Source: Isoalcanivorax indicus
GTDB taxonomy: Bacteria; Pseudomonadota; Gammaproteobacteria; Pseudomonadales; Alcanivoracaceae
Assembly: GCF_003259185.1 (NCBI RefSeq)
Contig: NZ_QGMP01000001.1
Coordinates: forward strand, 2,170,001-2,234,000
Reading direction: 5' to 3'
Length of the DNA: 64,000 bases
How positions within the stretch are numbered: the first letter of the stretch is position 1; each line of letters begins with the position of its first letter. The translations under genes and the position numbers were made by a program. Under the pieces are notes generated by a model, which saw only the letters and a program-made list of their open reading frames with translations, had not been told where the DNA came from and did not search any database. Positions 13,865 to 58,495 of the stretch are shown here, one piece after another.

Positions 13865-13981
13865 GGCCCTCGGGGGCGGGTACTGCTTTTCAGGACTGTC
13901 GAGAGGCATGGATGCCGAACGCAAGCCTACAAGGACGTATTCACGGCGTGTCCTGAAAAGCAGTACCCGCCCCCGAGGGCC
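13865..13981 (-). repeat. Structured inverted-repeat element, copy 1
   Basis: Perfect 32-bp arms (13865-13896 and 13950-13981) enclose a 53-nt core (13897-13949). The core reads in the opposite sense to copies 2 and 4 and differs from copy 2 at two positions; one change (TACG/TGTA) becomes a G-U pair. It is the only unpaired copy of the family and sits between relA and mazG. Its outer flank GTGACCACC matches the flank of other copies. Strand is given as that on which the core begins ACGCC. Confidence 0.9.
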
Positions 13982-14012
13982 GTGACCACCGCTCCCTGCC
14001 AGATACGATGCT

Positions 14013-16262
14013 TCATTTTTTGTAGCGTCGTACTTCAAGCACCCCAGGCAACTGATCCATCCGCGCCAGCACCTTGCCCAGATTCCCCAGACTGGAAATC
14101 TCGATCGTCAGCAACATCGTCGCCGTGTTGTCCTCCACATGCGATTCCGTATGCACCGCCGTCACATTCACCCGCTCATTGGCCAACACCGACAGCAGAT
14201 CACGCAACAACCCCTGCCGGTCCCACGCCCGGATATAGATATCCACCGGATAACTGATCCGGTCCGCATGCCCCCAGCTCACCTCGATCACACGCGCCGG
14301 ATCATCCGCCTGCATGGCCAGCAGGTTCGGGCACGTCGCCCGATGCACCGTCACGCCACGCCCGATGGTGATATACCCCATGATCGGATCGCCCGGAATC
14401 GGCTGGCAGCAGGCCGCGATATGGGTCATCAGATTGCCCACACCTTCGATGGTAATGTCGCTGGCGTCCTCACGGCGCGCATCCCGGGACTTGCGTGGAA
14501 TGAATTCCAGCTCACGCTGCGTCCCGTCAGCATCCAGCTGCCCCTGGACATGATTGACGACACTGGCCGGACGCAGATCGCCCGCCCCCAGCGCCGCCAG
14601 CACATCTTCGCCCGTCTTCAGATTGAATTGCGGTGCCAGCTGGTCCAGGTCTATATGCCCGAGTGCCAGACGCGACAGCTCGCGTTCCAGAATCGCCTTG
14701 CCCTGGCTGATATGCGTGCCGCGATCCTGACGCTTGAACCAGTGCTGAATGCGAGCACGGGCCGACGCACTGTGCACATAGCCCAGCGATGCCGTCAGCC
14801 AGTCGCGGCTGGGGCCGCCCTCGCGCGTCGTCAGGATTTCCACCTGCTCACCGGTCTGCAAGGTGTAGTTCAGGGGCACGATATGCCCATTGACCTTGGC
14901 GCCCCGGCAACGGTGCCCGACTTCAGTGTGAATCTGGTAGGCAAAATCGACCGGCGTGGCGCCCGCCTCCAGATCGACCACATGGCCATCCGGGGTGAAC
15001 ACGTAAACGCGCTGGCCGGTTTCCTGGCTGCGGAAATCGTCGACCAGATTGGCAATACTGGTTTCACCAAGCTCGTCGTGCCACTCCAGCACCTGGCGCA
15101 ACCAGGCGATCTTGTGTTCGTAGTCGGCCCCCTTGCGGCGCGGCCCACCCTCCTTGTAACGCCAGTGGGCACAGACACCCAGCTCCGCATCCTCGTGCAT
15201 ATCGAAGGTCCGGATCTGCACTTCCAGCATCTTGCGTTCCGGCCCCACTACGGCGGTGTGCAGACTCTGGTAACCGTTCTCCTTCGGCGTGGCGATATAG
15301 TCATCGAATTCTTTTGGCACATGCTGCCACAGCGAATGCACGATACCGAGAGCCGCATAGCAGTCACGCATTTCCGGCACGCGAATACGCACGGCACGCA
15401 CATCGTAGACTTCATAAAAGTCCAGATGCTTTTTCTGCATCTTTCGCCAGATGCTGTAGATATGCTTGGCGCGGCCATCTACCTGCGCGCCGTGAATGCC
15501 GGAGCGCTCCAGGTGGCCCTTGAGTTCATTGATGACATTGTCGATGTACTGCTCGCGATCGAGCCGTTTTTCATCGAGCAAACGCGCGATCTTCTTGTAG
15601 GCGCCCGGTTGCAGGTAACGGAACGACAGGTCTTCCAGTTCCCATTTCAACTGGCCCACACCCAGACGATGGGCCAGCGGTGCATAGATATCGAAAATCT
15701 CGCGGGCCACCTTGCGGCGACGCTCTTCATCGGCATCCTTGAGGGCACGAATGATGACCGTCCGTTCGGCCAGCTTGAGCAGGGCCACGCGCACATCATC
15801 GACCATGGCCACCAGCATCTTGCGGACGTTGTCGAGCTGTCCCTCCTGCTGGCCCAGCACCGGTTTGCGCGTCGGGTTGAGCACGGCACTGATGGCCGCC
15901 ATACGCAGTACACCCTCCACCAGCCGGGCGATGGTCTCGCCGAACTCGCGCTCGACTTCCAGCAGCGACAGGTGGCCCTCACGCACGGAGCGGTAGAGCA
16001 CGGCGGCAGGCAGGATTTCCCCGTCGGCACGAAGGTCTGCGAGGATTTCGGCCATTTCCAGGCCGATGCGGTAACAACCGATACCATAGGGCCAGCGGCG
16101 CCCGGCAAGGTCACCCGCTTCCTCGCACTGTCGCGCGCGATCACAGGCCCGCGCCAGCAGCTCCGTGTCCGGCAGGTGGCAACGGGCCTCCACGCTGGCC
16201 AGCCAGGTGGGCAAGTCGGTGTACTCTCCGGCCAGCGGCGGCTGACGGCGGACGGTAACCAT
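14013..16262 (-). CDS. relA: GTP pyrophosphokinase RelA ((p)ppGpp synthetase I)
   Basis: RelA makes (p)ppGpp on ribosomes stalled with uncharged tRNA. The 749 residues show the full order: a degenerate HD domain (LYRSVREG in place of the catalytic HD..ED residues, so no hydrolase), the synthetase domain (YEVYDVRAVRI, EFDDYIATPKENGYQSLHT, MHEDAELGVCAHWRYKEG), TGS, the zinc-finger region (ACCQPIPGDPIMGYI) and a C-terminal ACT domain. The EFDD acidic motif marks a monofunctional synthetase rather than a bifunctional SpoT. It follows rlmD by 39 bases in a cysM-rlmD-relA-mazG run, as in P. aeruginosa. Confidence 0.97.
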   Translation of the reverse strand: MVTVRRQPPLAGEYTDLPTWLASVEARCHLPDTELLARACDRARQCEEAGDLAGRRWPYGIGCYRIGLEMAEILADLRADGEILPAAVLYRSVREGHLSLLEVEREFGETIARLVEGVLRMAAISAVLNPTRKPVLGQQEGQLDNVRKMLVAMVDDVRVALLKLAERTVIIRALKDADEERRRKVAREIFDIYAPLAHRLGVGQLKWELEDLSFRYLQPGAYKKIARLLDEKRLDREQYIDNVINELKGHLERSGIHGAQVDGRAKHIYSIWRKMQKKHLDFYEVYDVRAVRIRVPEMRDCYAALGIVHSLWQHVPKEFDDYIATPKENGYQSLHTAVVGPERKMLEVQIRTFDMHEDAELGVCAHWRYKEGGPRRKGADYEHKIAWLRQVLEWHDELGETSIANLVDDFRSQETGQRVYVFTPDGHVVDLEAGATPVDFAYQIHTEVGHRCRGAKVNGHIVPLNYTLQTGEQVEILTTREGGPSRDWLTASLGYVHSASARARIQHWFKRQDRGTHISQGKAILERELSRLALGHIDLDQLAPQFNLKTGEDVLAALGAGDLRPASVVNHVQGQLDADGTQRELEFIPRKSRDARREDASDITIEGVGNLMTHIAACCQPIPGDPIMGYITIGRGVTVHRATCPNLLAMQADDPARVIEVSWGHADRISYPVDIYIRAWDRQGLLRDLLSVLANERVNVTAVHTESHVEDNTATMLLTIEISSLGNLGKVLARMDQLPGVLEVRRYKK

Positions 16263-16301
16263 GTTTCTACTCCCTCGGGCCCGGTACCGGAATCAGTACC
16301 C

Positions 16302-17645
16302 TCAGCACCGCTCGAACAGGGCGATGGATTCCACATGGGTGGTATGCGGGAACATGTCCATCACGCCCGCACTCACCAGATCGTAGCCCAGTGCCTTCAA
16401 CTCCCCCGCATCACGGGCCAGCGTGGCCGGATTGCAGGAGACGTAAACCAGTTTACTGGCCCCGAAATGGGGCATCAGACGAACCATTTCAAGCGCCCCG
16501 CTGCGCGGCGGGTCGATCAGCACCCGGTCAAAGTGGCTGTCTGCCCACGCCTGACCACTGATGTCCTGGCTCAGATCCCAGGCATGAAACGCCACATTAT
16601 CCAGGCCATTGGCCCGCGCATTTTCGTAGCCCCGCGCCACCATGGTGTCGCTCAGTTCCACACCCACCACCTCACGGGCGCGGCGCGCCAGTGGCAGGGT
16701 AAAATTGCCAAGACCACAGAACAGATCCAGCACCCGATGGTCCGGCTGGATATCCAGCAAGTCCAGTGCCAACGGCACCATGCGCTGGTTGATCTCGCTG
16801 TTCACCTGGGTGAAGTCGTTGGGGTGAAACGCCATGCGCAAATCAGCGCCGGGGTGCCGATAATGCAGCCGTGTCGGGACCGCATCCCCTTCCGGCGGCG
16901 CCACCCGATGCACAGTGCTTTCGTTGCCGGGCTGCAGGTAGCAGTGCCAGCCACGGGCCACACAAAAATCGATCAGTCGCTGCTGGTCCGCCGCGCTGAG
17001 CGGGTCCATATGGCGAAACACCAACGCGATGGCATCCTCGCCTGCGGCCACTTCTATCTGCGGAATACGGCGACGGCTTTCCAGGCTGTTGAGCAAGGCG
17101 CGCAGGTCCATGAAGGCATGGCCCACTTCCGGAATCAGCACCTCGCAGCCTTTCAGGTCGGCCAGGAAGTTGCTGCGCTTTTCACGAAAGCCGACAAACG
17201 CCGTCTCCCGGGCATCCACATAGCGCGCGCCAAGACGCGCCTTGGTCCGATACCCGGTGCGCGGGCCAAGTAGCGGGTCCAGCCAGGTGCGCGGGGTCAG
17301 GCCGCCAAAATGATCCAGCTGCTCGGCCAGCACCTGCTGTTTCAGGCGTATCTGCGCCTCGGGGTGCATGTGCTGCAGGCTGCAACCGCCGCAGATGTCG
17401 GCATGCTGGCATGGCGGGGCGACCCGCTCTGGCGCGGGCTGGCTGATGGTTTCGGCCACACCCTCATCAAACTTGCCGCGGCGCCAGGTGTAGCGGAATT
17501 CCACGGTCTCGCCCGGCAGGGCATTGGCGATGAAGGTGGTCTTGCCGTCCAGACGGGCAATACCACGGCCGTCGTGGCCCAGCGTTTCGATCTGTGCAGT
17601 GAAGGTGCCCTCGGGCAGGGGCTTGCGGCGCTGACGTCGACCCAT
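16302..17645 (-). CDS. rlmD: 23S rRNA (uracil-1939-C5)-methyltransferase RlmD
   Basis: A 447-residue SAM-dependent methyltransferase for U1939 of 23S rRNA (formerly RumA). It has an N-terminal TRAM domain ([20 protein letters not shown]), the iron-sulfur cysteines ([12 protein letters not shown]), the SAM-binding motif ([16 protein letters not shown]) and the catalytic region (IDPPRSGA, then [10 protein letters not shown] with the nucleophilic Cys). Its ATG overlaps the cysM TGA by one base, so the two are translationally coupled. No anomaly seen. Confidence 0.96.
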
Positions 17646-18562
17646 CAGACCGCTCCGGCCGGCGCCCGGAACACCCCGGTGGACAGGTAACGGTCACCCC
17701 GATCACAGACAATAGCGACGATCACGGCGTTCTCCACCTCACGGCTGAGTTGCAGCGCCGCCGCGATGGCGCCGCCCGAGGACACCCCGCAGAAGATGCC
17801 TTCCTCACGCGCCAGGCGGCGCATGGTGTCTTCCGCCATCTGCTGGCTCATGTCCACCACCCGGTCCACCCGGCTGATATCGAAGATGCTGGGCAGGTAC
17901 TCTTTCGGCCAGCGGCGGATGCCCGGGATCTGCGCGCCATCCGTCGGTTGCAGACCGATGATCTCGATATCCGGGTTCTGTTCCTTGAGGTACTTCGACA
18001 CCCCCATGATGGTGCCGGTGGTGCCCATGGAGGAAATGAAATGGGTGATGCGGCCGCCGGTATCACGCCAGATCTCCGGGCCGGTGGTCTCGTAGTGGGC
18101 CAGCGGGTTGTCCGGGTTGGCGAACTGGTCCAGCACCCGGCCTTCTCCCCGGGCCTGCATCGCCTGCGCCAGATCGCGGGCACCTTCCATGCCCTCCTCC
18201 TTGCTCACCGAGATCAGCTCGGCGCCGTAGGCCGCCATGGCATCACGACGCTCCTGACTCTGGTTGGCGGGCATGATCAGCTTGATGCGGTAGCCGCGCA
18301 TGGCCGCCGCCATGGCCAGGGCGATGCCGGTGTTGCCACTGGTCGCCTCGATCAGCGTATCGCCCGGGCGGATCTCGCCACGCGCCTCGGCTTTCATGAT
18401 CATGTTCAGGGCCGGGCGGTCCTTGACGGAACCGGCCGGGTTATTGCCCTCCAGCTTGGCCAGGATGACATTCGAGGTGTCCCCGGGCATGCGCTGCAGG
18501 CGCACCAGCGGCGTGTTACCGACGGTGCTCTCGATATTGGGGTATGGGGTGGATGCGCTCAT
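17645..18562 (-). CDS. cysM: Cysteine synthase B (O-acetylserine sulfhydrylase) CysM
   Basis: A PLP enzyme making cysteine from O-acetylserine and sulfide or thiosulfate. The 305 residues fit CysM (E. coli 303). The PLP lysine is in [10 protein letters not shown], the substrate loop in EATSGNTG, and the phosphate-binding region in [17 protein letters not shown]-like and [13 protein letters not shown] sequences distinguish CysM from CysK. The frame stays open far upstream on this strand, but similarity begins at MSASTPYPN (ATG 18562); ATG 18571 is an alternative. Divergent from gacS with a 93-bp gap. Confidence 0.95.
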
Positions 18563-18655
18563 GGGCGCCATTGTAGGCGCCACCGCGCCGCGCCGCCAGC
18601 AGGGGTGATGCCGGCCCCGTGGCCGTGCATAATGCCGGAATGCCAGGACACAATA

Positions 18656-21412
18656 ATGACTGATCTCAATCTGCGCACACGTATCCTGCTGCTGACCGCC
18701 GTGCCGGTAGTCATCGCGGCATTGGCGCTGGGCGGCTATGTGCTGTCGAGTCGCGTCAACGAGATTCGCGACAACACCCACAACCTGCATCGCCTGATTC
18801 TGGACAGCTACGCCGCCCGCCTGCAAGCGCTGGACGCCGCAGATCTGGCCGGCCACCAGCGCGTGATGCAGGCCCTGCTCGATGAAGCCGACGTGCGCGC
18901 CGCCACCCTGCGCCAGGGCCCTGATGCCGTGCACGCCGGGCCGCGCATGCGCCCGCTGAATGGCGACAACCAGACCTTCAACAGCCTGTCGCCGGACACC
19001 CACATCCTGCCCACCGGCGACACCTGGCGCTGGCGCCAGCAGTTGCACGCCGACCCCGAACGGGTACTGGAAATCGAGTTCTCCGGTCACCGGCAACGTA
19101 TCGAGATGCTGGAGACCCTGCTCACCCTTGTTCTCAGCACCCTGACCATCATCGGCCTGGCCCTGATTCCGGCCCTGCGCTTCAGCCGCCGTATGACGGC
19201 GCCGATGACCGCCTTTACCGAAACCCTGCAGCAGATCCGCGACGGCGCCCTGAACAGCCGCGTGCATGTGGGGGCCGGGGGCGAACTGGGCCAGCTTGAA
19301 CGTGCCATCAACGCCATGGCCGAAGCACTGGAAGAGGCGCAGACGGAACTGCAACAGAACGTCGATCAGGCCACGGAAGACCTGCGCGAAACACTGGAAA
19401 CCATCGAGATCCAGAACATCGAACTGGACATGGCACGCAAGCAGGCGCTCAAGGCCAGCCAGATCAAGTCCGAGTTCCTGGCCAACATGAGCCACGAAAT
19501 CCGCACGCCGCTGAACGGCATTATCGGCTTCACCCGGCTACTGCTGCGCTCGGAACTGAGCCCGCGCCAGCGCGATTACCTCAGCACCATCCGCAAGTCC
19601 TCCGAAGCCCTGCTGTCGATCATCAATGACATCCTCGACTTCTCGAAGATCGAGGCCGGCAAACTGAGCCTGGATCGCGTGCCCCTGAACCTGCACGACC
19701 TGATCGAGGAAGTGCAGACCATGCTGGCGCCGCTGGCCCAGGAAAAGAGCCTGGAACAGGCCGCCATCATCTATTCCGACGTGCCACTGCACCTGCTCAG
19801 CGACCCGCTGCGCATCCGCCAGGTGCTGACCAACCTGGTCAACAACGCCATCAAGTTCACCGAGCGCGGCTCGGTGGTAGTGCGCACCATGCTGGAAGAA
19901 GAGCGCGACCATATGGCCACCATCAAGGTGGCCGTGACCGACACCGGCAGCGGCATCAGCGAAGAAATGCAGAAGGAGTTGTTCAGCGCCTTTACCCAGG
20001 TGGACCAGAGCAGCGCCCGGCGCATGGGCGGCACCGGCCTGGGCCTGGCCATCTCGAAACGCCTGGTGGAAGAAATGGGCGGCGAGATCGGTGTCGACAG
20101 CACCCCCGGCCGCGGCTCCACCTTCTGGTTCACCCTGCGCGTGGAAATCGACGAACACACCCCCGTCACCGACAGCTTCCGCGCCTTTCGCGGCGCCACC
20201 GCCATCCTGATCGAACCCAACGAGCATGCCCGCCTGGGCCTGTACCACATGCTGCGCGCCTGGGGGCTGGAAGTGACCACCCTGCAAGCGCTGGATGCCC
20301 TGCTACCCATGCTGGAAGACAACAGCCTGCCCGCAGCAGACTTCGCCATCATCGGCATGCCCCCCGGGCACGATCAGGACGACGAAGTGCGGCGAGCCGC
20401 GGAGCTGCTCTGCGGCCAGCAACAACGCCGCCTGGTGGTGCTGTGCAACCAGGCTGACCGCCTGAGCCGGCGACTGCCGGAATACCCGCAACTGCATCGC
20501 GTGCTCGGCAAACCCGCCACCCGCATGCGTCTGTATGACGCCCTGCTGGAATTGAGCGGCCAGGAGAATGACCACCGCAGCCAGCGCGGCGGCGAGCCAC
20601 GCTCCGATCTGAACCTGAACGTCATGGTGGTGGACGATCACCCCGGCAACCTGCGCCTGGCCACCGTATTCCTGGAAGAAATGGGCGTGCGTGTGCGCGC
20701 CTGCCACAGCGGCGCCGACGCCATCGCCGCCTTTGCCGAACAGACCTTCGACCTGGTGTTCATGGACATCCAGATGCCGGACATGGACGGCATGCAGACC
20801 ACCCGTGAACTGCGTGCCCTGGAGCAGGACCAGCGCCACACCCCGATCATCGCCCTGACCGCGCATGCTCTGGCCAGCGAGCGCCAGACCCTGCTCCAGG
20901 CCGGGATGGACGACTATCTGTCGAAACCGGTGAGTGAAGGGCACCTGCGCCACATGCTGGAAAAATGGGTCGCCGCCCCCGACGTGCAGCGCATCAGGAC
21001 TGCCGCGCCGACCGACGACCCGCAGGACGACGACGCCCCCTTGCCCGGCGAAGAAACCCTGCCGGTGTTCGACCCCGCCCTGGCGCTGGCCCGCGCAGGT
21101 GACCGCCCGGCCCTGGCCCAGGAGATGCACAGCATGTTGCTGGCCAGCCTCGACCAGGATGCACCGCGGATCAGCGCCCAGGCCGAAGCCGACAGCCTGA
21201 CGCCGTTACTGGAAAGCGTGCACAAGCTGCACGGCGCCACCCGCTACTGCGGCGCGCCGCGCCTGGAACGGGCCGCCCGGACCCTGGAAGAAGCCTTGAA
21301 GACCGACGCCCCCGACAACGTGCGCAACGACGCCGTGGATCGCCTGCTGCTGGAGATCGAAGCCGTGCGTACTCAGGTGCCGGATTCAATTACCGCAAAC
21401 GCCAGCACATAG
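18656..21412 (+). CDS. gacS: Hybrid sensor histidine kinase GacS/BarA
   Basis: The inner-membrane sensor of the Gac/Rsm regulatory cascade, which phosphorylates GacA/UvrY. The 918 residues run in order: TM1 (about 10-30), a periplasmic region of about 120 residues, TM2 (about 155-180), HAMP, a coiled linker, the H-box with H280 ([10 protein letters not shown]), and the ATPase domain ([23 protein letters not shown]). A degenerate receiver follows in which the phospho-acceptor Asp is replaced (AIIGMPPG), then a true receiver with D704 ([11 protein letters not shown]) and an Hpt domain with H856 ([10 protein letters not shown]). ATG 18656 is chosen from the TM1 position; AGGA lies upstream. The last 40 bases overlap acpS on the other strand. 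Its position beside cysM is conserved in Pseudomonas. Confidence 0.93.
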
Positions 21413-21759
21413 TCCTGTTCATCGCTGATCGACACATGCGCACGGCAGCCGCCCCCGGCGCGCTCAAGCCGCGCCGCCCCGGCACCGAACCAGAACACCT
21501 CCGGACGCCCCAGCGCATCAGGCAGCACCGCCATGTCACGCCAGCTCAACCCCTGGCGCAACCCGGTCCCCAATGCCTTGAGCAACGCCTCCTTGGCCGC
21601 AAAGCGCTTGGCCAGCCAGCGCACCGGGTCCTTGTGCGCCTGCCATATCTGTAATTCATCATCGTGCAGCAAGCGCTGCGCCAGCGCCGCACCGCGCCGC
21701 CCACAGGCCGCCTGCATGCGTGCAACCGCTACAATGTCCGTACCGATACCGACGATCAC
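21373..21759 (-). CDS. acpS: Holo-[acyl-carrier-protein] synthase
   Basis: AcpS transfers 4'-phosphopantetheine from CoA to apo-ACP. The 128 residues carry the two family signatures, [12 protein letters not shown] near the N-terminus and [15 protein letters not shown] around residues 50-64, with the metal-binding Asp and Glu. It starts with GTG inside the pdxJ stop (GTGA overlap of 4 bases), the usual pdxJ-acpS coupling. Its 3' end overlaps the end of gacS by 40 bases in convergent orientation. Confidence 0.95.
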
Positions 21760-22505
21760 ACCCGCCGCCCGGCGCGCACCGCCGCCTGATCAATCAGCGC
21801 CCGCATGCTGCGCACCGCCTCATCGAGCCCGGTAAGCACCGCGCGGGCGACAATGGCATGGCCGATATTCAGCTCATGAATACCCGGCAGCGCGGCAATG
21901 TCCTGCGTATTGTGATAGTGCAGCCCATGCCCGGCATTCACGATCAGACCGTTTTCCTTGCCCAGATCCAGCCCGGTGTGGATACGCCGCAGCTCCTCGA
22001 TACGCGTGGCCTCGTCGTCTGCCTCTGCGTACTGCCCGGTGTGCAATTCAATCGCGGCGGCACCGCAGGCCACGGCGGCCTCGATCTGCGCGGGCACGGC
22101 ATCAATAAACAGCGACACCTGAATACCCGCATCATTGAGACGGCCACAGGCGGCTTTCAATTCCTCGAAATTCCCGACCACATCCAGGCCACCTTCGGTG
22201 GTGAGTTCTTCGCGCCGTTCGGGCACCAGGCAGCAATGCGGTGGCCGCAGGCGGCAGGCAATATCGAGCATTTCGCGGGTGGCGGCCATTTCCAGATTGA
22301 TACGGGTCTGGGCGGTCTGCATCAGCAGTTCCACATCCCGGTCGTTGATATGACGGCGATCTTCACGCAGGTGCACGGTAATGCCGTCGGCGCCGGCCTG
22401 TTCGGCCATCAGCGCAGCCTGCACGGGCTCGGGATAACGGGTGCCGCGCGCCTGGCGCAGCGTAGCGATGTGGTCGATATTCACGCCCAGCAGGACACGT
22501 TGCAT
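21756..22505 (-). CDS. pdxJ: Pyridoxine 5'-phosphate synthase PdxJ
   Basis: PdxJ condenses 1-deoxyxylulose 5-phosphate with 3-amino-2-oxopropyl phosphate in vitamin B6 synthesis. The 249-residue TIM barrel has [16 protein letters not shown], the conserved start, [21 protein letters not shown] and the phosphate-binding end NAGHGL...[12 protein letters not shown]. The open frame continues upstream into the repeat elements, but family similarity starts at MQRVLLGVN (ATG 22505; AAGGGAAA upstream). It is the penultimate gene of the rpoE-to-acpS run, separated from recO by two structured repeats. Confidence 0.96.
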
Positions 22506-22613
22506 GATGAGTCGGTTTCCCTTGGTCGTCGGATGGAAGCTCTGGTTTGTCAGTATAAACCCTTGGGCTGTGAGTTGTCGGTATGGACCATTGCTTCCTG
22601 GTTTGGTGGTTAT

Positions 22614-22730
22614 GGCCCTTGGGGACGGGGACTGCGTTTCAGGACACGCCGTGAATACATCCCTGTAGGCTTGCGTTCGGCATCCATGCCTCTCGACAGT
22701 CCTGAAACGCAGTCCCCGTCCCCAAGGGCC
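22614..22730 (+). repeat. Structured inverted-repeat element, copy 2
   Basis: Perfect 32-bp arms (22614-22645 and 22699-22730) flank a 53-nt core (22646-22698). Within the core, GCC (22648-22650) and GGC (22668-22670) bracket a TACA/TGTA hairpin (22656-22667), and GGCAT/ATGCC (22679-22690) forms a second hairpin. This is the reference copy of core variant I. It forms a tail-to-tail pair with copy 3, 144 bases away, between pdxJ and recO. Confidence 0.92.
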
Positions 22731-22874
22731 GTCACGTGCAGCCAGTCCCAAAGGCTGCCAGCCAACCGGGAGTCATGTTCTTGCTGCCGCCGCGAGCCCG
22801 GACCAGACAATGAAGTCCCAGCACGAACCCATCTTGCCGTTCGCTGAACGTCCATTGATCCCACTGAACGTGCC

Positions 22875-22991
22875 GGTCCAAGGGGGCGGGCATTCCCTTT
22901 CAGGACCTTCGAGAGGCATGGATGCCGAACGAGAGCTTACAGGGATGTACTTGCAGCGTGTCCTGAAAGGGAATGCCCGCCCCCTTGGACC
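22875..22991 (-). repeat. Structured inverted-repeat element, copy 3
   Basis: Perfect 32-bp arms (22875-22906 and 22960-22991) surround a 53-nt core (22907-22959) of variant II, identical to copy 5 and inverted relative to copy 2. In variant II the GCC/GGC closing pairs become GCT/AGC and the GTGAA bulge becomes GCAAG, so pairing is kept. It is the right-hand member of pair A. Confidence 0.92.
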
Positions 22992-23021
22992 ATGACCACA
23001 GGACGATGAAGAATGGAACAA

Positions 23022-23702: not shown

Positions 23703-23704
23703 AC

Positions 23705-44888: not shown

Positions 44889-45007
44889 GGCCCTCGGGGG
44901 GCGGGTAAGGGTGTTCAGGACACGCCGTGAATACCTCCCTGTAGGCTTGCGTTCGGCATCCATGCCTCTCGACAGTCCTGAACACCCTTACCCGCCCCCC
45001 GAGGGCC
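44889..45007 (+). repeat. Structured inverted-repeat element, copy 4
   Basis: Perfect 33-bp arms (44889-44921 and 44975-45007) surround a 53-nt core (44922-44974) of variant I, one base different from copy 2 (TACC instead of TACA, which costs one pair in the small hairpin). Left member of pair B. It lies just after the AraC gene and before ung, so between convergent genes. Confidence 0.92.
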
Positions 45008-45132
45008 GTCACGCGCAGCCTGGTCAACAGCTTCCAGCCAACCGAAGGCTTGATTCTTCCGCTAGGCCGGGCTGAGCAGCACGAACAAAACGTTCCGTTG
45101 GCTGGTGGCTTGTTAAACGGGCTGCGCGTGAC

Positions 45133-45249
45133 GGCCCGCAGGGGTGGATGTCCCCTTTCAGGACCTTCGAGAGGCATGGATGCCGAACGAGAGCTTACAG
45201 GGATGTACTTGCAGCGTGTCCTGAAAGGGGACATCCACCCCTGCGGGCC
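45133..45249 (-). repeat. Structured inverted-repeat element, copy 5
   Basis: Perfect 32-bp arms (45133-45164 and 45218-45249) with a 53-nt core (45165-45217) identical to copy 3 and inverted relative to copy 4. The arms differ strongly from those of copy 3 in the middle of the stem but remain fully complementary. Right member of pair B. Confidence 0.92.
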
Positions 45250-45279
45250 ATCACCACCACACCACCAAAACATGGCACC

Positions 45280-49723: not shown

Positions 49724-49748
49724 TGGGGATCTCCCTTGTTCAATGAAA

Positions 49749-49769
49749 CGCCCGCCTTGTGGGCGGGCG
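49749..49769 (-). terminator. Hairpin after the DUF389 gene
   Basis: Stem CGCCCGCC / GGCGGGCG with a 5-base loop, 44 bases after the DUF389 stop on the minus strand, followed by TTTCATT, a weak T-run. Confidence 0.6.
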
Positions 49770-49813
49770 GCAGACTCATGGTAACGGCATCACGCGTTGC
49801 CCGGTAGGGCCGT

Positions 49814-51751: not shown

Positions 51752-51869
51752 GGGGGCTCCTTGGAGGGGATGATCCGGAAGCACATCTTCCCTTCCCGAG
51801 TCCGTGAGGGTCAATCCATGACGACATCCGACAGGCCCTGAACATCATTCACATTCCAACACATGAAAC

Positions 51870-51882
51870 GATAACTGTTATC
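51870..51882. promoter_or_regulatory. 13-bp perfect palindrome upstream of the TonB receptor
   Basis: GATAACTGTTATC, perfectly symmetric around its central base, lies 5 bases before the Fur-box-like site. It may be a second half-match for Fur or the site of another regulator. Confidence 0.4.
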
Positions 51883-51886
51883 TCTT

Positions 51887-51905
51887 GCAAATCATTCTCA
51901 TTATA
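51887..51905. promoter_or_regulatory. Fur-box-like operator
   Basis: Read on the minus strand TATAATGAGAATGATTTGC matches the 19-bp Fur consensus at 14 positions. It lies 58 bases before the TonB receptor ATG, where it would overlap a promoter. It implies iron repression of the five-gene operon that follows. Confidence 0.7.
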
Positions 51906-51962
51906 AATAGCATTCACGCCCTCTTGATTCTTTTGCTTGCCCAGACAACAGGAGCCCGCATC

Positions 51963-54356
51963 ATGCCTTGCTTGCGCCTCGCCTATTTACCGCTCTGCCT
52001 GCTGGTCTTGACCAGTCCGATACAGGCCAGCGAGCCCGCCGCCGATGCACCAAACCGGCTGGACCAGGTGGATGTCGTCTCGACCGCCGCCGGTTTTACC
52101 CAGAAACTGACCGATGCCCCGGCCAGCGTCACCGTGGTGACACGCCAGGAACTGGAGAACAAGCCCTACGCGGGACTGGCGGACGCCCTCCGGGATATCG
52201 AAGGCATTGATACCGGCGCCAATCTCGACAAGAACGGCAATATCAGCATCACCCTGCGCGGCCTGCCCCCCGAATACACGCTGATACTCATCAATGGTCG
52301 GCGGCAGAGTGACATCGGCAACATCGGCCCGAACAATTTCGGCAACAGCCAGTTCATGTACATGCCACCTCTGGACGCCATCGAGCGTATCGAAGTCGTA
52401 CGGGGCCCCATGTCGACCTTGTATGGGGCAGACGCCATGGGCGGGGTCATCAACATCATCACCCGCAAGGTGGCCGATCAATGGGGCGGCTCGGTATCAC
52501 ACAGCCTGACCCTGCAGGAGCAATCCCAGTTCGGCGATGACCGTAAAACCGACTTCTTTGCCACCGGCCCTCTGGTCCAGGGGCTGCTGGGCATGAGCGT
52601 CCGCGCCAGCCTGTTTGAGCGCGACGACAGCGACCCCGGATACGCCGGCAATCAACTGCCACTGCCTCCGGAAGATATCAATGACGTTCCCAACCCCCCG
52701 TTCTTCGAAGACAGCGGCAACTTTGGCGACCGAAAGATCGTGGCGGCAAAGAACTGGAATGCGGGCGTCAGCTTCAATCTGACGCCGCTCGAGAACCATG
52801 ACTTTACCCTGGAGTACGATGTCGCGCGCCAGCGCTACGACAACACAGAGGGCCAGACGGGTACCCTGGATGGCCCCGACAGCCTCTGGCGTCAGGGCAC
52901 TGGCGGTACGGCCGGCATCGTCGCCCCTCGGGTCGGCTATAGCGAATATCAGCGCGTGGAGCGCGACCAGGCAGTGCTGGCCCATACTGGCAGATGGTCG
53001 TTTGGCACCACCGAGAGCAGCTTCACCCACAGCCGCAGCGCCAATCTGGGACGCTCCCTGCCGCTGACAGTGCAGGAACGTGAAGCACTTCAGGCCATCT
53101 GGGACCAGGCCAAGGCGGACCAGGGCATTGCCGGTAACGGTGCGCCCGAACTCACCGATGATATTCGCACCGAACTGGAAAACACCTTCCTGCCCCGCCA
53201 GCGACGTGAGCTGGAGATCCGCAACAACATCTTCGACAGCAAATTCCATGGTGAAGTGGGCCGGCACCTGTTCACGCTCGGCGGGCAATACTTCCATGCC
53301 GAAATGGAAGACGGCGTCTTCGGCATGTTCGGCGACGGCTTCCGCGATGGCACCGTCCAGAAACATGAGCAATGGGCGATCTTCGCCGAAGACAACTGGG
53401 ACATCGTCGATGCGCTGACCATCACGCTGGGCACGCGTTACGACCATCACAACATATTTGGCAGCCAGGTCAGTCCGCGCGGTTATCTGACCTTCCGGGC
53501 AAATGACAACTGGACCCTGAAAGGCGGTGTCAGTACCGGTTACAAGGCGCCAAGACCAGAGCAACTGTTCCCCGGTATCACCGGCTTCGGCGCACAGGGT
53601 GTCAGCCCGATGGTCGGCTCGCCGGATCTGCAACCGGAAACCAGCATCAACTATGAACTGGCGGCTTATTTCACGAACTGGGATAACTTCAACGGGAACA
53701 TTACCGTCTTCTTCAATGATTTCAGGGACAAGATCGTTAATCAGGACAATGCGCCCAATTGCTTTGACAACAATGGCAACCAGGTGCTGACAGAAAACTG
53801 CGTCAACATCGGCCCGGGCTGGGCAGAACTCGGGTACACCCAGTTCAGACAAGCCACCAACGTCGACAAGGCAGAAACCCGCGGCGTGGAACTGGCCGGC
53901 CGTTACCACTTTACCCCGGCGCTGTGGCTGCGCATGAACTATACCTACACGGATAGCGAGCAGAAGAGCGGCGCAGAGCGCGGTCTGCCGCTGGTCAACA
54001 CGCCCGAACACATGGCCAATGCCACGCTGGGATGGGACGCCACGGAAAATCTGAGCCTGTCGCTGATCTCGGAAATCCGTGACGAGCGCTTCCGTGGTGT
54101 GGCGGATGCCAGCGGCCCGCAGCAAGTCTCTCAAAAGCTCTACTACAAGGGCTATGAGGTACTGAGCGCTGGCGCCCGATACACCGTCAGCGATCAACTG
54201 ACCCTGCACGCGCGGGTCAACAATCTGCTCGACAAGGATATGTCCGGCCGTACCTGCACCCTCAATGCGGAGCAGAACGGCTACCACTGCGCCAATGACT
54301 ACAACGTGACAGAAAAAGGCCGCAGCCTCTGGCTGTCCGCCAACATGCATTTTTGA
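51963..54356 (+). CDS. TonB-dependent outer-membrane receptor (siderophore type)
   Basis: A 797-residue ligand-gated barrel. It has a signal peptide (cleavage near IQAS), a plug with LTDAPASVTVVTRQEL, DALRDIEGIDTGAN, ITLRGLPPEYTLILINGRR and VRGPMSTLYGADAMGGVINIITRK (about residues 35-170), then a 22-strand barrel ending in NMHF. The plug resembles FepA/CirA types. ATG 51963 follows CAGGAG; upstream frame codons are not needed. It heads a plus-strand operon with PepSY, DUF2271, DUF4198 and flavoreductase genes behind a Fur-box-like site, so a ferric chelate is the likely ligand. The specific ligand cannot be read. Confidence 0.93.
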   Translation: MPCLRLAYLPLCLLVLTSPIQASEPAADAPNRLDQVDVVSTAAGFTQKLTDAPASVTVVTRQELENKPYAGLADALRDIEGIDTGANLDKNGNISITLRGLPPEYTLILINGRRQSDIGNIGPNNFGNSQFMYMPPLDAIERIEVVRGPMSTLYGADAMGGVINIITRKVADQWGGSVSHSLTLQEQSQFGDDRKTDFFATGPLVQGLLGMSVRASLFERDDSDPGYAGNQLPLPPEDINDVPNPPFFEDSGNFGDRKIVAAKNWNAGVSFNLTPLENHDFTLEYDVARQRYDNTEGQTGTLDGPDSLWRQGTGGTAGIVAPRVGYSEYQRVERDQAVLAHTGRWSFGTTESSFTHSRSANLGRSLPLTVQEREALQAIWDQAKADQGIAGNGAPELTDDIRTELENTFLPRQRRELEIRNNIFDSKFHGEVGRHLFTLGGQYFHAEMEDGVFGMFGDGFRDGTVQKHEQWAIFAEDNWDIVDALTITLGTRYDHHNIFGSQVSPRGYLTFRANDNWTLKGGVSTGYKAPRPEQLFPGITGFGAQGVSPMVGSPDLQPETSINYELAAYFTNWDNFNGNITVFFNDFRDKIVNQDNAPNCFDNNGNQVLTENCVNIGPGWAELGYTQFRQATNVDKAETRGVELAGRYHFTPALWLRMNYTYTDSEQKSGAERGLPLVNTPEHMANATLGWDATENLSLSLISEIRDERFRGVADASGPQQVSQKLYYKGYEVLSAGARYTVSDQLTLHARVNNLLDKDMSGRTCTLNAEQNGYHCANDYNVTEKGRSLWLSANMHF

Positions 54357-54366
54357 GGCGACCGTC

Positions 54367-54975
54367 GTGGCGATTTCTTCCAGTCTGTGGCGCCAGGTCG
54401 TGCAATGGCACTGGATCAGTTCCGCCGTATGCCTGATCGGTATGCTGCTGTTTGCCCTCACCGGCATCACGCTGAACCACGCCGCAGACATCGAGGCGCA
54501 TCCGGTAGTCAGCACCTGGCAAGGCACCCTGCCCGCGCCCCTGCGCGCCTCGCTGGACGCGCAGGACGACGGCGCGGCGCCGCTGCCACGCGCGCTGCGC
54601 GAGTACCTGGTGCGGGAAACCGGCAACGACCCCGGTGCCCGGGTAGCGGAATGGGATGACGGCGACCTCTATCTGTCGCTGCCACGCCCCGGTGGCGATG
54701 CCTGGTTAAGCGTGGATATCGACAGCGGCGAGTGGCTGCTGGAGCGCACCGATCGCGGCGTCATCGCCTGGCTCAACGATCTGCACAAGGGCCGCAACAC
54801 CGGCACCGCCTGGTCCTGGTTCCTCGACATTTTCGCGCTCGGCTGTGTGGTGTTCTGCCTCACCGGCCTGCTGTTGCTTTATCGCTATGCAGGCGCGCGG
54901 CACAGCACCTGGCCACTGGTCGGCCTCGGTGTGGTGATTCCCGCGCTGCTGCTGCTTCTTTTCGTACACGCATGA
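54367..54975 (+). CDS. PepSY-associated membrane protein
   Basis: A 202-residue inner-membrane protein with three or so helices: one near residues 13-37 (WHWISSAVCLIGMLLFALTGITL), one near 150-170 (WFLDIFALGCVVFCLTGLLLL) and one at the C-terminus. Between them is a periplasmic PepSY-like domain (about 45-140) and NDLHKGR, the His-containing motif of PepSY_TM reductases. It starts with GTG 54367 after GAGG, 10 bases from the receptor stop. Family members work in siderophore reduction; with the flavoreductase downstream it could be the transmembrane electron carrier. Confidence 0.82.
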   Translation: MAISSSLWRQVVQWHWISSAVCLIGMLLFALTGITLNHAADIEAHPVVSTWQGTLPAPLRASLDAQDDGAAPLPRALREYLVRETGNDPGARVAEWDDGDLYLSLPRPGGDAWLSVDIDSGEWLLERTDRGVIAWLNDLHKGRNTGTAWSWFLDIFALGCVVFCLTGLLLLYRYAGARHSTWPLVGLGVVIPALLLLLFVHA

Positions 54976-55000
54976 GGATTTGTTCCATGAGGAGATCACG

Positions 55001-55513
55001 ATGCGCTTTCCAATCCTGATCGGCCTGTCGATGCTGCTGCCTGTCAGCAGCCTGGCTGCCGAACTGACCGTCTCGGTGGAAGTGCCGCGCCTGAACGTGG
55101 CCGAGTACCACCGCCCCTATGTGGCCCTCTGGCTGGAACATGCCGACACCGGCGAGATCACCAGCCTGTCGGTCTGGTACGACCTGAACCTGCGCAACCG
55201 CGAGGGCGAAAAATGGCTCAAGGACATGCGCCAGTGGTGGCGCCGCGACGGCCGCAGCCTGACCTTCCCGGTGGACAGCGTCAGCAGCGCCACCCGCCCG
55301 GTCGGCCACCACACCCTGACGTTCGTTCCCGGCGAGTCGCCGCTGAACGCGCTGCCCGACGGCGACTATCGCCTGCTGGTGGAAGCCGCCCGCGAAGTGG
55401 GCGGGCGTGAAGTCCTGACCCTGCCCTTTACCTGGCCCGTGTCGGCGGCGCACACCGTCGAGGCACAGGGCGAACATGAACTCGGCGCGGTCTCGTTAAC
55501 CGTCGCACCTTGA
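55001..55513 (+). CDS. DUF2271 periplasmic protein
   Basis: A 170-residue exported protein: signal peptide (MRFPILIGLSMLLPVSSLAA), then a beta-sandwich domain with YHRPYVALWLEHADTGEI and LSVWYDLNLRNREGEKWLKDMRQWWRR, the signature of DUF2271. ATG 55001 follows GAGGAG. It lies in a TonB receptor-PepSY-DUF2271-DUF4198-flavoreductase operon. Function unknown; the conserved grouping suggests it handles a metal or chelate in the periplasm. Confidence 0.85.
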   Translation: MRFPILIGLSMLLPVSSLAAELTVSVEVPRLNVAEYHRPYVALWLEHADTGEITSLSVWYDLNLRNREGEKWLKDMRQWWRRDGRSLTFPVDSVSSATRPVGHHTLTFVPGESPLNALPDGDYRLLVEAAREVGGREVLTLPFTWPVSAAHTVEAQGEHELGAVSLTVAP

Positions 55514-55536
55514 AACGCATCATCAGGAGAACATCC

Positions 55537-56358
55537 ATGAACACTACGGCCACCCGTTTGCTGTTACCTGCCCTGGCACTGGGCAGCGCCCTGCTGCTGC
55601 CACTGACCGCCCAGGCCCACCGCGGCTGGATCCTGCCCGCCGCCACGACGCTGTCCAGCGAGGACGCCTGGGTCACGTTTGATGGCGCCATTTCCAACGA
55701 TATTTTCCACACCGACTATGCGCCGCTGCGCCTGAACAATCTGGAGGTGGCGGGCCCCAACGGTGAGGCGATCACCGTGCACAATGCGCACACCGGCAAG
55801 TACCGCAGCACCTTCGACCTGAACCTGACCGAACGCGGCACCTACCGGATCAGCGCCGTCAACACGGGCATCTTTGCCAGTTGGGAAGAAAACGGTGAAC
55901 GCAAACGCTGGCGCGGCAGCGCGGAAGAATTCGCGAATGCGGTACCGCGCCGGGCGAAAAAACTCGAAGTCACCGAATTCTCCCGCCGCCTGGAAACCTA
56001 TGTCACCGCCGGCGCCCCGGACAAGTCGGTGTTTGTCACCGAAGGCACGGGCCTGACGCTGGCGCCGGACACCCACCCGAACGATCTGTTTGCCGGCGAA
56101 ACCGCGCGCTTCCGCTTCCTGATCGACGGCAAACCCGCCGCCGGTGCCAGTGTGGAGGTGATTCCCGGTGGCATGCGCTACCGTAACCATCAGGATCTGG
56201 AAACCCTGACCACTGATGAGGACGGGTACCTGAGCATCCAATGGCCCGGCGCGGGTATGTACTGGATTGGCGCCAGCTACGACGATGACCAGGCCAGCCG
56301 ACGCGGTGCGCGACGTCATGCCAGCTACAGCGGTACCTTCGAGGTGTTGCCTGACTAA
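55537..56358 (+). CDS. DUF4198 periplasmic protein
   Basis: A 273-residue exported protein with a signal peptide (cleavage at AQAHRGW) so that the mature protein begins with His, as expected for a metal-contacting N-terminus in this DUF4198 (NikM/CbtA-like) family. Two beta-sandwich domains follow, the second with ARFRFLIDGKPAAGASVEVIPGG, and a final TTDEDGYLSIQWPGAGMYWIGA. CAGGAG precedes ATG 55537. In other bacteria DUF4198 proteins accompany nickel or other metal uptake systems. Confidence 0.83.
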   Translation: MNTTATRLLLPALALGSALLLPLTAQAHRGWILPAATTLSSEDAWVTFDGAISNDIFHTDYAPLRLNNLEVAGPNGEAITVHNAHTGKYRSTFDLNLTERGTYRISAVNTGIFASWEENGERKRWRGSAEEFANAVPRRAKKLEVTEFSRRLETYVTAGAPDKSVFVTEGTGLTLAPDTHPNDLFAGETARFRFLIDGKPAAGASVEVIPGGMRYRNHQDLETLTTDEDGYLSIQWPGAGMYWIGASYDDDQASRRGARRHASYSGTFEVLPD

Positions 56359-56361
56359 GCG

Positions 56362-58128
56362 ATGCGCCTCGACATGACGGCTTCCGCAAACACCACCTGG
56401 CGACTGCCCGATGCGCCATCCCGTCCCGGGGTGGCGCGCTCCTTTGCCGCCCTGAGTGTCGCGGCGTTGCTGCTGTGTCTGTTATGGCCCGGCGAACGGG
56501 TACTCCTGTGGCTGAACCCCTCGCTCCCCACGCCCGACATGACGGAGCGTGCGCTGCCCGCCGCGCCACTGATCCGCCGCATTGAAGCCGCCGAACCGGC
56601 CCTGCGCGTGCACCAGCTGCGTCTGCCCACCGCACCAGGACAACTGGCCCGGGCGACGCTGATCGACAACAACGGCACGGCACATCAGCGGCTGGTCAAT
56701 CCGGTGACCGGCGCACTGCACAGCGAACTGCGCGGCGCGGCGCTCCATCAACGCATGGAGCGCGCCCGGCAGCGCCTGCTGCGGACGCTGGGCGCGCCCC
56801 TGCCTGCCGCGTTCCTGATGTTATTCGGCTATGCCCTGTGGAGTCGCAGCCTGCTGCGCCGTGCGCACCCCGCTGCAGCATCCGGGCGCCCCGGACCCAC
56901 CACACTGGTCGGTTACGCCAGCCAGACCGGAGGCGCTGAAGCGCTGGCCCGGCAGGCCGCCGACGTCCTGCAACAGGCCGGTCGCCAGGCCCGGCTGTTA
57001 CCACTGAATGCCATCACTGCCGAGCAGCTGGCCGACACCCGCGAGGCCCTGTTTCTGGTCAGCACCCACGGCGATGGTGACCCGCCGGACAATGCCGCCG
57101 TCTTCGCTCGCCGCCAGTTGCCCGCCAGCGCGGACCTCAAAGGTCTGCGCTTCGGTCTGCTCGCTCTGGGTGACCGTCGCTATACGGATTTCTGCGGCTT
57201 CGGCCGCAGCCTGCACCAGTGGCTTTGCCAACACGGCGCCTGCGCATTATTTCCGCCGCTGGAAGTCGATGATCAGTGCCCGGACGCCTTGATGCAGTGG
57301 CAGGCTCACCTGCAGGGGCTGAGCGGCCAACCCGCTGTTCACGCCAGTGACAGCGCAGCGACCTTCTCGGCACCCGGCGTGCACACGGCCACACTGGTGC
57401 GGCGCCAGCCCCTGAATCCCGGCAGCCCCGGCAACCCGGTCTGGCAGGTGGATTTTGACGCCAGCACGCTACCCACCTGGGAGGCGGGCGATCTGGCGCT
57501 GCTGCATCTCGATCAGAACGAAACCCGCAGCTACTCGATTGCCTCGCTCCCGGGCAGCGGTGTCTTGCGCCTGCTGGTACGTGCCATGTACCGACCCGAC
57601 GGCACACCCGGCCTGGGCTCCGGCCTGCTGACTCGGCAGCTTGCGCCGGGCGAGGAGGCCCGTCTCAGCCTGCGCAGCAACCCCGGCTTCCGCCCGCCTG
57701 CCGCCGACACGCCCCTGATCCTGATCGGCAACGGCACTGGCCTGGCGGGCCTGCTCGCCCATCTGCACCAGCGCATGGCCGATGGCGCCTGTCGCAACTG
57801 GCTGCTTTTCGGCGAGCGCAGCCCGCAACACGATCGCTTCTGCAACGACATCCTGGACCTCTGGGTTCAGCAGGGCTCGTTGCACATGCAGCGCGTCTTC
57901 TCCCGCCCCTTTTCTGACACCCCCGCCAGCACCCTGTCCTACGTTCAGGACCTGCTGCCCGCGCACGCTGACACCTTGCGCGAATGGCTCGCCGACGGCG
58001 CTGTGCTCTGTGTTTGCGGCAGCCTGACCATGGGCCAGGGCGTCGACCAGACCCTCCGCCATCTCCTGGGCGACGACGACGTGGACGCGTTGCTGACTGC
58101 AGGGCGGTATCGTCGGGATGTCTACTGA
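56362..58128 (+). CDS. Membrane flavoreductase (PepSY/flavodoxin/FNR-like)
   Basis: A 588-residue oxidoreductase. Residues 27-45 and about 148-162 are membrane helices with a periplasmic PepSY-like loop between them. About 180-320 is a flavodoxin domain (FMN; GYASQTGGAEALARQ, STHGDGDPPDNA, LALGDRRYTDFCGFG). About 350-588 is an FAD/NADPH reductase of the sulfite-reductase alpha type (RSYSIAS, LIGNGTGLAGLLAH, GSLTMGQGVD). It should take electrons from NADPH to a periplasmic acceptor, probably a ferric chelate. It starts at ATG 56362 three bases after the DUF4198 stop; ATG 56374 is possible. Repeats 6 and 7 follow. Confidence 0.88.
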   Translation: MRLDMTASANTTWRLPDAPSRPGVARSFAALSVAALLLCLLWPGERVLLWLNPSLPTPDMTERALPAAPLIRRIEAAEPALRVHQLRLPTAPGQLARATLIDNNGTAHQRLVNPVTGALHSELRGAALHQRMERARQRLLRTLGAPLPAAFLMLFGYALWSRSLLRRAHPAAASGRPGPTTLVGYASQTGGAEALARQAADVLQQAGRQARLLPLNAITAEQLADTREALFLVSTHGDGDPPDNAAVFARRQLPASADLKGLRFGLLALGDRRYTDFCGFGRSLHQWLCQHGACALFPPLEVDDQCPDALMQWQAHLQGLSGQPAVHASDSAATFSAPGVHTATLVRRQPLNPGSPGNPVWQVDFDASTLPTWEAGDLALLHLDQNETRSYSIASLPGSGVLRLLVRAMYRPDGTPGLGSGLLTRQLAPGEEARLSLRSNPGFRPPAADTPLILIGNGTGLAGLLAHLHQRMADGACRNWLLFGERSPQHDRFCNDILDLWVQQGSLHMQRVFSRPFSDTPASTLSYVQDLLPAHADTLREWLADGAVLCVCGSLTMGQGVDQTLRHLLGDDDVDALLTAGRYRRDVY

Positions 58129-58167
58129 AGTGTGGCTGGTGCCATTACTTTCGGGTGTGGTGGTTAT

Positions 58168-58286
58168 GGCCCTCGGGGGGCGGGTAAAGGGTTTCTGGAC
58201 ACGCCGTGAACCCATCCATGGGGGCTCTCGTTCGGCATCCATGCCTCTCGAAGGTCCAGAAACCCTTTACCCGCCCCCCGAGGGCC
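58168..58286 (+). repeat. Structured inverted-repeat element, copy 6
   Basis: Perfect 33-bp arms (58168-58200 and 58254-58286) with a 53-nt core (58201-58253). The small hairpin TACA/TGTA of other copies is replaced by CCCAT/ATGGG (58211-58222), still between GCC (58203-58205) and GGC (58223-58225), a clear compensatory change. Left member of pair C. Confidence 0.92.
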
Positions 58287-58382
58287 GTCACGCGCAGCCC
58301 GGTTAACAACGTCCAGCCAACCGGGAGCCTGGTTCTGGCGACATGCTACGAAGTGGGATTCATGTCGTTGGCACTGAACTGA

Positions 58383-58495
58383 GGCCTCGGGGCGGGGTAC
58401 TCCCTTCCAGAAGTGTGTGAGGCAGGATGCCGAACGCAAGCCCCCATGGATGGGTTCACGGCGGCTTCTGGAAGGGAGTACCCCGCCCCGAGGCC
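58383..58495 (-). repeat. Structured inverted-repeat element, copy 7 (short core)
   Basis: Perfect 31-bp arms (58383-58413 and 58465-58495) and a 51-nt core (58414-58464). Read on the minus strand, it has the CCCAT/ATGGG hairpin of copy 6 and a shortened second hairpin GGCA-TCC-TGCC, where the usual is GGCAT-CC-ATGCC. The closing sequence of the arms (CCAGAAG) differs from the TTTCAGGAC of other copies on both arms. Right member of pair C. Confidence 0.88.

What the first reader, a model, noticed from the sequence alone, without database searches (positions are those of the whole stretch)
13865..58495. Seven-copy family of perfect long-stem intergenic repeats with a shared core
Seven elements (13865, 22614, 22875, 44889, 45133, 58168 and 58383) have 31-33-bp arms that are perfectly complementary within each copy and enclose a 51-53-nt core. 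The cores align to each other on either strand. The arms keep the outer GGCC and inner TTTCAGGAC ends (six of seven copies) but vary in the middle. A chance run of seven perfect 31-33-bp stems is not credible. All lie between genes, next to stop codons. They could be a MITE-like mobile element, a REP-like family or a structured RNA/terminator. I do not know a named family with this core.
Basis: seen in the sequence. Interest (0 to 1): 0.88.

Follow-up and report, generated by a model that had tools for sequence, protein, structure and literature searches.

The report
Dispersed twin-hairpin CsrA-type RNA repeats
The seven repeats belong to a large, apparently unnamed family of hairpin elements scattered through gammaproteobacterial genomes, and each carries two loops with the sequence that the global RNA-binding regulator CsrA/RsmA recognises, so they may be spread-out docking sites or decoys for it; binding itself has not been tested.

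Summary
In detail: seven intergenic elements, each with perfect 31-33-bp arms around a 51-53-nt core. The genome has at least 62 such elements. Relatives occur in 65 of 369 sampled genomes of the class; all 29 positives among 398 genomes of the phylum sample lie in this class. No Rfam family matches at its gathering score.

The core is conserved, not the arms. It fits a three-way junction with two hairpins (16 of 35 pairs changed on both sides) on an arbitrary long stem. Read on the other strand, both loops are nearly always A(N)GGA, commonly C-ANGGAN-G, the published CsrA/RsmA site, with about 20 nt between them. Arm mismatches in other genomes are 118 A.C to 16 G.T on the model strand, so G.U is tolerated on the GGA strand: that strand's fold appears selected.

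Elements often form inverted pairs, and are gained or lost, flipped and re-partnered between related species. Best reading: a BIME-like mosaic repeat whose conserved part is a CsrA-dimer-binding RNA module. Binding, transcription and any mobilising enzyme are unproven; a Y1/RAYT transposase was not found in 12 of 65 carriers.

The parts
13865..13981 (+). Single element, type A (strand given = strand with the GGA loops); arms 32 bp, core 13897-13949
22614..22730 (-). Type A element, left half of an inverted pair; core 22646-22698; loops (as TCC on + strand) CATCCCTG 22658-22665 and CATCCATG 22681-22688
22875..22991 (+). Type A element, right half of the same pair
22614..22991 (.). Composite inverted pair A-A between pdxJ-type and recO-type genes; contiguous match in G005, missing from the alignment gap in G001 and G003
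44889..45007 (-). Type A element, left half of a pair
45133..45249 (+). Type A element, right half of the pair (extends its arms to 45128-45254 with one mismatch)
44889..45249 (.). Composite pair between an AraC-type gene and a uracil-DNA-glycosylase-type gene (convergent); the two halves are in the opposite order in G005 (whose contig ends inside the right half); absent in G001, G003, G006
58168..58286 (-). Type A element, left half of a pair; hp1 variant CCCATCCATGGG
58383..58495 (+). Type B element, right half; 51-nt core 58414-58464; loops CAGGATG 58423-58429 (CsrB-type) and CATGGATG 58445-58452
   Evidence: predicted fold

Best explanation
A family of dispersed, BIME-like repeats. The unit is a long hairpin whose arms can have any sequence as long as they pair. 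Its conserved cap is a three-way junction with two short hairpins, each showing an A(N)GGA loop on one strand. Proposed mechanism: when that strand is transcribed (read-through or pervasive transcription), the two GGA loops, about 20 nt apart, bind the two RNA pockets of one CsrA/RsmA dimer, and the long stem protects and presents them. Each transcribed copy would then hold or titrate CsrA, acting as a distributed CsrB/RsmZ-like decoy or a local CsrA anchor. Inverted pairs would give one GGA copy whichever strand is read. The elements turn over as non-autonomous mosaic repeats. SHOWN: anatomy, class-wide conservation, covariation, strand-specific mismatch bias, loop motif and spacing, presence/absence and rearrangement between species. 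INFERRED: CsrA binding, transcription, decoy or anchor function, mobilisation.
For: (1) Core conserved across the class while arms differ in sequence and length. (2) Three-way junction in 31 type-A copies: 99.6% of cells paired, 16 of 35 pairs changed on both sides, 123 doubly changed cells against 32.4 in shuffles; no one-sided (G.U) changes in the 20 arm pairs. (3) Loops on the GGA strand. Model-found set (56 of 58 cores with arms >=15 bp kept by a length filter): hp1 A(N)GGA 56 of 56, hp2 54 of 56. Pattern-found set (112 of 119 kept): hp2, which the pattern did not force, 106 of 112, the other 6 still GGA. Own genome (arms >=24 bp): 50 of 50 for both. (4) This is the published motif: SELEX RUACARGGAUGU with a six-nt loop, CsrB CAGGA(U/A/C)G, CsrA bridging two sites 10-63 nt apart with optimum >18 (PMC7652899, passages); Rsm motif A/U CANGGANG U/A (PMC4353343, passages). 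Here the GGA-GGA gap is 20 nt in 49 of 50, 47 of 56 and 79 of 114 elements; hp1 often reads UACAGGGAUGUA. (5) Diverged copies keep the loops: 11 of 11 fetched type-C copies have two CANGGANG on the same strand; in a Saccharophagus MAG the hp2 stem is all A/T around AGGGAT or AGGAT. (6) Arm mismatches, 166 distinct arms outside the own genome: A.C 118, G.T 16 on the model strand (p 2e-20; per element 75 to 9, p 4e-14), i.e. G.U tolerated on the GGA strand. (7) CsrA is found in 60 of 65 carriers; among genomes >=90% complete, 53 of 54 carriers against 227 of 260 non-carriers (Fisher p 0.015).
Against: No binding or transcription data. Orientation is not biased to neighbouring genes elsewhere: GGA strand sense in 44, antisense in 51 co-directional contexts. 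In this genome the element next to a convergent gene's stop usually has the non-GGA strand in sense. The hp2 stem shows no G.U/A.C bias (9 to 8), and the own genome alone is not decisive (A.C 6, G.T 3). The mismatch bias would also arise from a selected single-stranded DNA hairpin. MFE folds of the GGA strand give the hp2 hairpin in 5 of 5 but the hp1 hairpin in only 3 of 5. The five-nt bulge (GTGAA and variants on the model strand) is conserved and is not explained by CsrA. The model was trained on sequences with these loops, so the model-found set leans towards them. One near-complete carrier (G232, 98%) and four incomplete ones have no CsrA hit; all-genome Fisher p is only 0.085. Sites 1-3 are empty in sister species, so no given copy is essential.
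Confidence: 0.5

Rival explanations
1. A strand-specific single-stranded DNA hairpin transposon, as for REPINs/IS200-IS605: an unknown enzyme recognises the folded GGA strand as DNA, and the loop motif is its recognition site. The likeness to the CsrA site is chance.
For: Strand-specific tolerance of mismatches also fits ssDNA (G-containing mismatches are the most stable in DNA too, recalled). No gene-orientation bias. Presence/absence, flipping and partner exchange. Inverted pairs in other genomes: 23 of 34 neighbouring pairs are model +/-.
Against: No linked transposase found: no element near the genome's single Y1 match; no Y1 match in 12 of 65 carriers, several complete and with many copies (Y1 is enriched in carriers, 53 of 65 against 188 of 304, p 0.0024, so it is not excluded as helper). 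Six fixed and two free loop positions coincide with the published CsrA motif, twice.
Confidence: 0.25
2. A 3'-end element: a transcription attenuator or exonuclease barrier, as proposed for REP/BIME, with the core conserved for stability only.
For: Own genome: 19 of 36 clusters lie in convergent junctions and 3 in divergent ones, against 38 and 40 of 209 junctions in the same loci. Very stable folds, z -7 to -9.
Against: No T-tract after the arms; some copies follow an apparent terminator already; convergent enrichment is weaker elsewhere (41 of 159 against 137 of 825 junctions); does not explain fixed loop sequences or strand bias.
Confidence: 0.12
3. A DNA (cruciform) binding site for a chromosome-organising protein; arms kept perfect by template-switch correction at inverted repeats.
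For: Arms in this genome are perfect in 39 of 50 elements, with 13 mismatches in 1615 pairs; no G.U intermediates in arm pairs of A1.
Against: A cruciform exposes both strands and predicts no strand bias, yet 118 to 16 is seen.
Confidence: 0.06

Closest known systems
[not shown]
   Same: GGA in loops of short hairpins, five- or six-nt loops, several sites about 20 nt apart (motifs from passages of PMC7652899 and PMC4353343).
   Different: Those are single dedicated genes; this is a dispersed repeat with tens of copies, two sites per unit, on a long arbitrary stem, with no promoter or terminator of its own found.
REP / BIME / REPIN (GTAG-tagged palindromes, RAYT-mobilised)
   Same: Intergenic, tens of copies, inverted pairs, mosaic composition, enriched in convergent junctions.
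   Different: Stems 22-36 bp instead of 5-13 (range from PMC3733652), three-way-junction core, no GTAG tag on type A (type B has CGTAG just outside the arm), no RAYT required, class-wide core.
CGTC-tagged REPs (Di Nocera et al. 2013, PMC3733652)
   Same: Palindromic repeats without a known transposase, mostly in inverted dimers; by eye, many cores here show a CGTC next to hp2 on the GGA strand.
   Different: Those have 8-9-bp stems beginning with AT, 4-5-nt loops and a CCA tail, mostly in alphaproteobacteria; not the case here.

Membership tests
CsrA/RsmA-binding RNA (CsrB/RsmZ type) | A(N)GGA in the loop of short hairpins | tested here: met
   motif in print
CsrA/RsmA-binding RNA (CsrB/RsmZ type) | Two or more sites at a distance a dimer can bridge (10-63 nt, optimum >18) | tested here: met
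   gap 20 nt in 49 of 50 own, 47 of 56 and 79 of 114 others
CsrA/RsmA-binding RNA (CsrB/RsmZ type) | Binds CsrA | not testable with these tools
   needs gel shift or CLIP
CsrA/RsmA-binding RNA (CsrB/RsmZ type) | Independently transcribed sRNA gene | not tested
   no expression data; no promoter scan was run
GTAG-REP/BIME | GTAG tag at the foot of a 5-13-bp stem | tested here: not met
   arms mostly 22-33 bp, no GTAG beside type A; definition from PMC3733652
GTAG-REP/BIME | Cognate RAYT transposase in the genome | tested here: not met
   no Y1 match in 12 of 65 carriers; the genome's one Y1 locus has no R1 match within 3.3 kb
GTAG-REP/BIME | Inverted dimers, mosaic composites | tested here: met
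CGTC-REP | 8-9-bp stem beginning AT, 4-5-nt loop, CCA tail | tested here: not met
   sequences against the definition
MITE | Terminal inverted repeats, target-site duplication, matching autonomous element | tested here: inconclusive
   outer flanks CCATTCT..GGTGGTTAT recur; empty sites found but too diverged to read a duplication; no autonomous element sought genome-wide
Rfam family | Reaches a family's gathering score | tested here: not met
   0 matches in the window; only generic microRNA-hairpin matches below threshold over an element
Intrinsic terminator | T-tract after the stem | tested here: not met
   flanks

The most novel reading that the evidence does not exclude
A class-wide, dispersed and partly mobile CsrA sponge: Gammaproteobacteria carry tens of copies of a repeat whose conserved function is to dock a CsrA dimer, so that global CsrA activity depends on how many copies a genome has and which are transcribed, and species differ in it through gain, loss and flipping of copies.
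Probability: 0.35. Interest if true: 0.92.

Novelty: new variant of a known kind. Interest (0 to 1): 0.72.

Why it matters
If true, the CsrA/RsmA network has a second, dispersed layer of antagonists besides CsrB/RsmZ, carried by repeats that differ in number between sister species. It would give a concrete function to a large class of 'extragenic palindromes', and it is directly testable with CLIP-seq and gel shifts. Even if the CsrA part fails, a class-wide strand-specific structured repeat without an Rfam family is worth naming, since it can break assemblies (several G005 contigs end in it).

Tried and rejected
Rejected: Rfam family; RAYT as required mobiliser; intrinsic terminator (no T-tract); mRNA 3'-UTR element in fixed orientation (44 to 51); CGTC- or GTAG-REP membership; plasmid-borne spread (one 68-nt core query, no match in 72,556 plasmid records); virus-borne spread (2 IMG/VR stretches match the core pattern). 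Literature: searches listed nothing that I recognised, from titles and abstract starts, as this element or as a link between CsrA and dispersed repeats; subscription papers and preprints are not in that library. A target-site duplication could not be read.

Weak or wasted steps: one search used an ORF-like translation as query and tests nothing useful; one search timed out. 'Matches' of model R1 (88 own; 38, 37, 60 in G001, G003, G005) include some opposite-strand matches to the same element, so I use at least 62 elements for the own genome: 50 with arms of 24 bp or more in fetched loci plus 12 further places listed. Counts of copies are capped at 10-11 per genome. In one search, 221 matches became 213 after removing overlaps, 209 rows, 172 with arms >=18 bp outside the own genome, 166 distinct. 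The mutation-bias control (own flanks: C>T 20, G>A 4 in the 3' flank; T>C 15, G>A 4 in the 5' flank) uses inherited copies and is only indicative.
Full report
OBSERVATION. The seven elements are real and placed as reported. Minor points are corrected in the observation check. Six of the seven form three inverted pairs.

FAMILY IN THE GENOME. A core profile over fetched own-genome loci found 50 elements with arms of 24 bp or more. Of these, 39 are perfect and the rest carry 13 mismatches in all, out of 1615 pairs. Twelve further places are listed, so at least 62. There are two closely related subtypes: A (53-nt core) and B (51-nt core, CTTCCAGAAG inner arm). A more diverged type C was found beside many A elements. 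Of 36 clusters, 18 show two elements facing each other on the model strand, as A-A, A-B or, in one case (L037), A with C; several elements seen as single by the profile have a type-C neighbour. Flanking sequence outside type A is also shared (CCATTCT...GGTGGTTAT before, GTCACGCGCAGCC after).

STRUCTURE. On 31 distinct type-A copies, the structure is a long stem P1 capped by a three-way junction with hp1 (GCC/GGC plus a 4-bp tip, five-nt bulge) and hp2. 99.6% of cells pair; 16 of 35 pairs have changes on both sides; the covariation score is 0.344 against 0.102 in shuffles, and all slid versions fall far below. In P1 no pair shows a one-sided change. RNAalifold gives much the same fold.

DISTRIBUTION. 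Model R1 built from these copies matches 14 of 37 near relatives; within the genus 3 of 6 other species. In an even sample of the class it matches 65 of 369 genomes, and 29 of 398 in a phylum sample, all 29 in the same class (how many of the 398 belong to other classes is not shown). By their titles these are gammaproteobacterial (Stenotrophomonas, Xanthomonas, Marinobacter, Rheinheimera, Microbulbifer, methanotrophs, Shewanella, Alcanivorax and others), two being labelled only Proteobacteria. In these genomes arms of most elements are 22-33 bp and differ completely from those here, but pair: of 166 distinct arms, 55 are perfect and 103 have at most one mismatch.

WHICH STRAND FOLDS. In those 166 arms (4464 pairs, 225 mismatches), mismatches on the model strand are A.C 118, C.T 51, C.C 19, G.T 16, T.T 8, G.A 8, A.A 3, G.G 2. 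Read on the opposite strand these are G.U 118, G.A 51, G.G 19, A.C 16, A.A 8, C.U 8, U.U 3, C.C 2. G-containing mismatches, the milder ones, prevail on that strand only. The arm finder treated all mismatches alike, and model R1 would favour G.U on its own strand, i.e. the opposite bias. So the fold of the GGA strand appears to be selected, as RNA or single-stranded DNA. The own genome shows the same direction weakly (6 to 3); the hp2 stem does not (9 to 8).

THE LOOPS. On that strand both hairpins present A(N)GGA. Model-found set: hp1 56 of 56, hp2 54 of 56. Pattern-found set, hp2 not forced: 106 of 112, the other six still GGA. Own genome: 50 of 50 for both. The commonest full form is C-ANGGAN-G; type B and some others have the five-nt form AGGAN. 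Type C keeps two CANGGANG on one strand in 11 of 11 copies, and a Saccharophagus MAG has four tandem copies whose hp2 stem is A/T only around AGGGAT or AGGAT. The published sites are RUACARGGAUGU (SELEX, six-nt loop), CAGGA(U/A/C)G (CsrB), dimer bridging at 10-63 nt with optimum >18 (PMC7652899, passages) and A/U CANGGANG U/A (Rsm; PMC4353343, passages). The gap between the two GGAs here is 20 nt in 49 of 50 own elements, 47 of 56 and 79 of 114 others. Predicted GGA-strand folds show the hp2 hairpin in 5 of 5 and the hp1 hairpin in 3 of 5.

TURNOVER. Site 13865 is present in G005 but absent in G001, G002, G003 and G006; site 44889/45133 is in G005 with its halves in opposite order, and absent in G001, G003 and G006. 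For 22614/22875 the same presence/absence for G005 against G001 and G003 is read from alignment gaps only. At two other sites this genome has an A-C pair where G005 has a B next to the flank or contig, and G001 and G003 are empty; G005 contigs break in these elements, so the linkage is partly inferred. No target-site duplication could be read.

CONTEXT. Own genome: 19 convergent, 14 co-directional and 3 divergent clusters, against 38, 131 and 40 of 209 junctions. Other genomes: 41 convergent, 95 co-directional, 23 divergent, 11 inside called genes, 37 at locus ends. The GGA strand is sense in 44 and antisense in 51 co-directional cases, so no orientation rule. Genes were called with a simple codon-model script.

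FACTORS. CsrA: 60 of 65 carriers; 53 of 54 carriers against 227 of 260 non-carriers among genomes at least 90% complete (Fisher p 0.015; all genomes p 0.085). This is permissive, not decisive: CsrA-poor genomes are often small. Y1 transposase: 53 of 65 carriers against 188 of 304 others (p 0.0024), but with 12 carriers lacking a match, so not required.

INTERPRETATION. Shown: a class-wide, strand-specifically folded repeat with two loops of CsrA type at bridging distance, in BIME-like mosaics that turn over. Inferred: that CsrA binds it, and that transcribed copies act as decoys or anchors. The main rival is a single-stranded DNA transposon whose recognition loops resemble the CsrA site by chance. 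The two are compatible in part: an element may spread by one route and be tolerated or kept for the other.

LITERATURE. Nine searches. For PMC3733652 I saw the outline, abstract and passages; for PMC2817692, PMC7652899 and PMC4353343 passages; all others as listings only.

Noticed in passing
L016:3195-3420, L027 about 9652-9861, L029 about 2990-3100: The same kind of insert (TGAGACAAGC...GCCATCTGTGATGGCGGGC..., roughly 80-100 bp) sits inside the hairpin region of three own-genome elements, as if a second small element targets these loops.
   Followed up: no
L170:3114-3743; G008:C1:94424-95646: Tandem arrays of the element in one orientation: four copies about 180 bp apart in a Saccharophagus MAG and six about 227 bp apart in G008; transcribed, such arrays would carry 8-12 GGA loops, like a CsrB.
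   Followed up: partly
L267, L268: Two IMG/VR viral contigs contain the core pattern; R1 scores 74 and 35 bits. Context not examined.
   Followed up: no
L040 (G000:C1:836342-836665): The single Y1-transposase match of the genome has no R1 match around it.
   Followed up: partly
G005 contigs C26, C50, C64, C87, C91, C136: Contig ends of this relative coincide with the elements, so copy numbers in draft genomes are probably too low.
   Followed up: no
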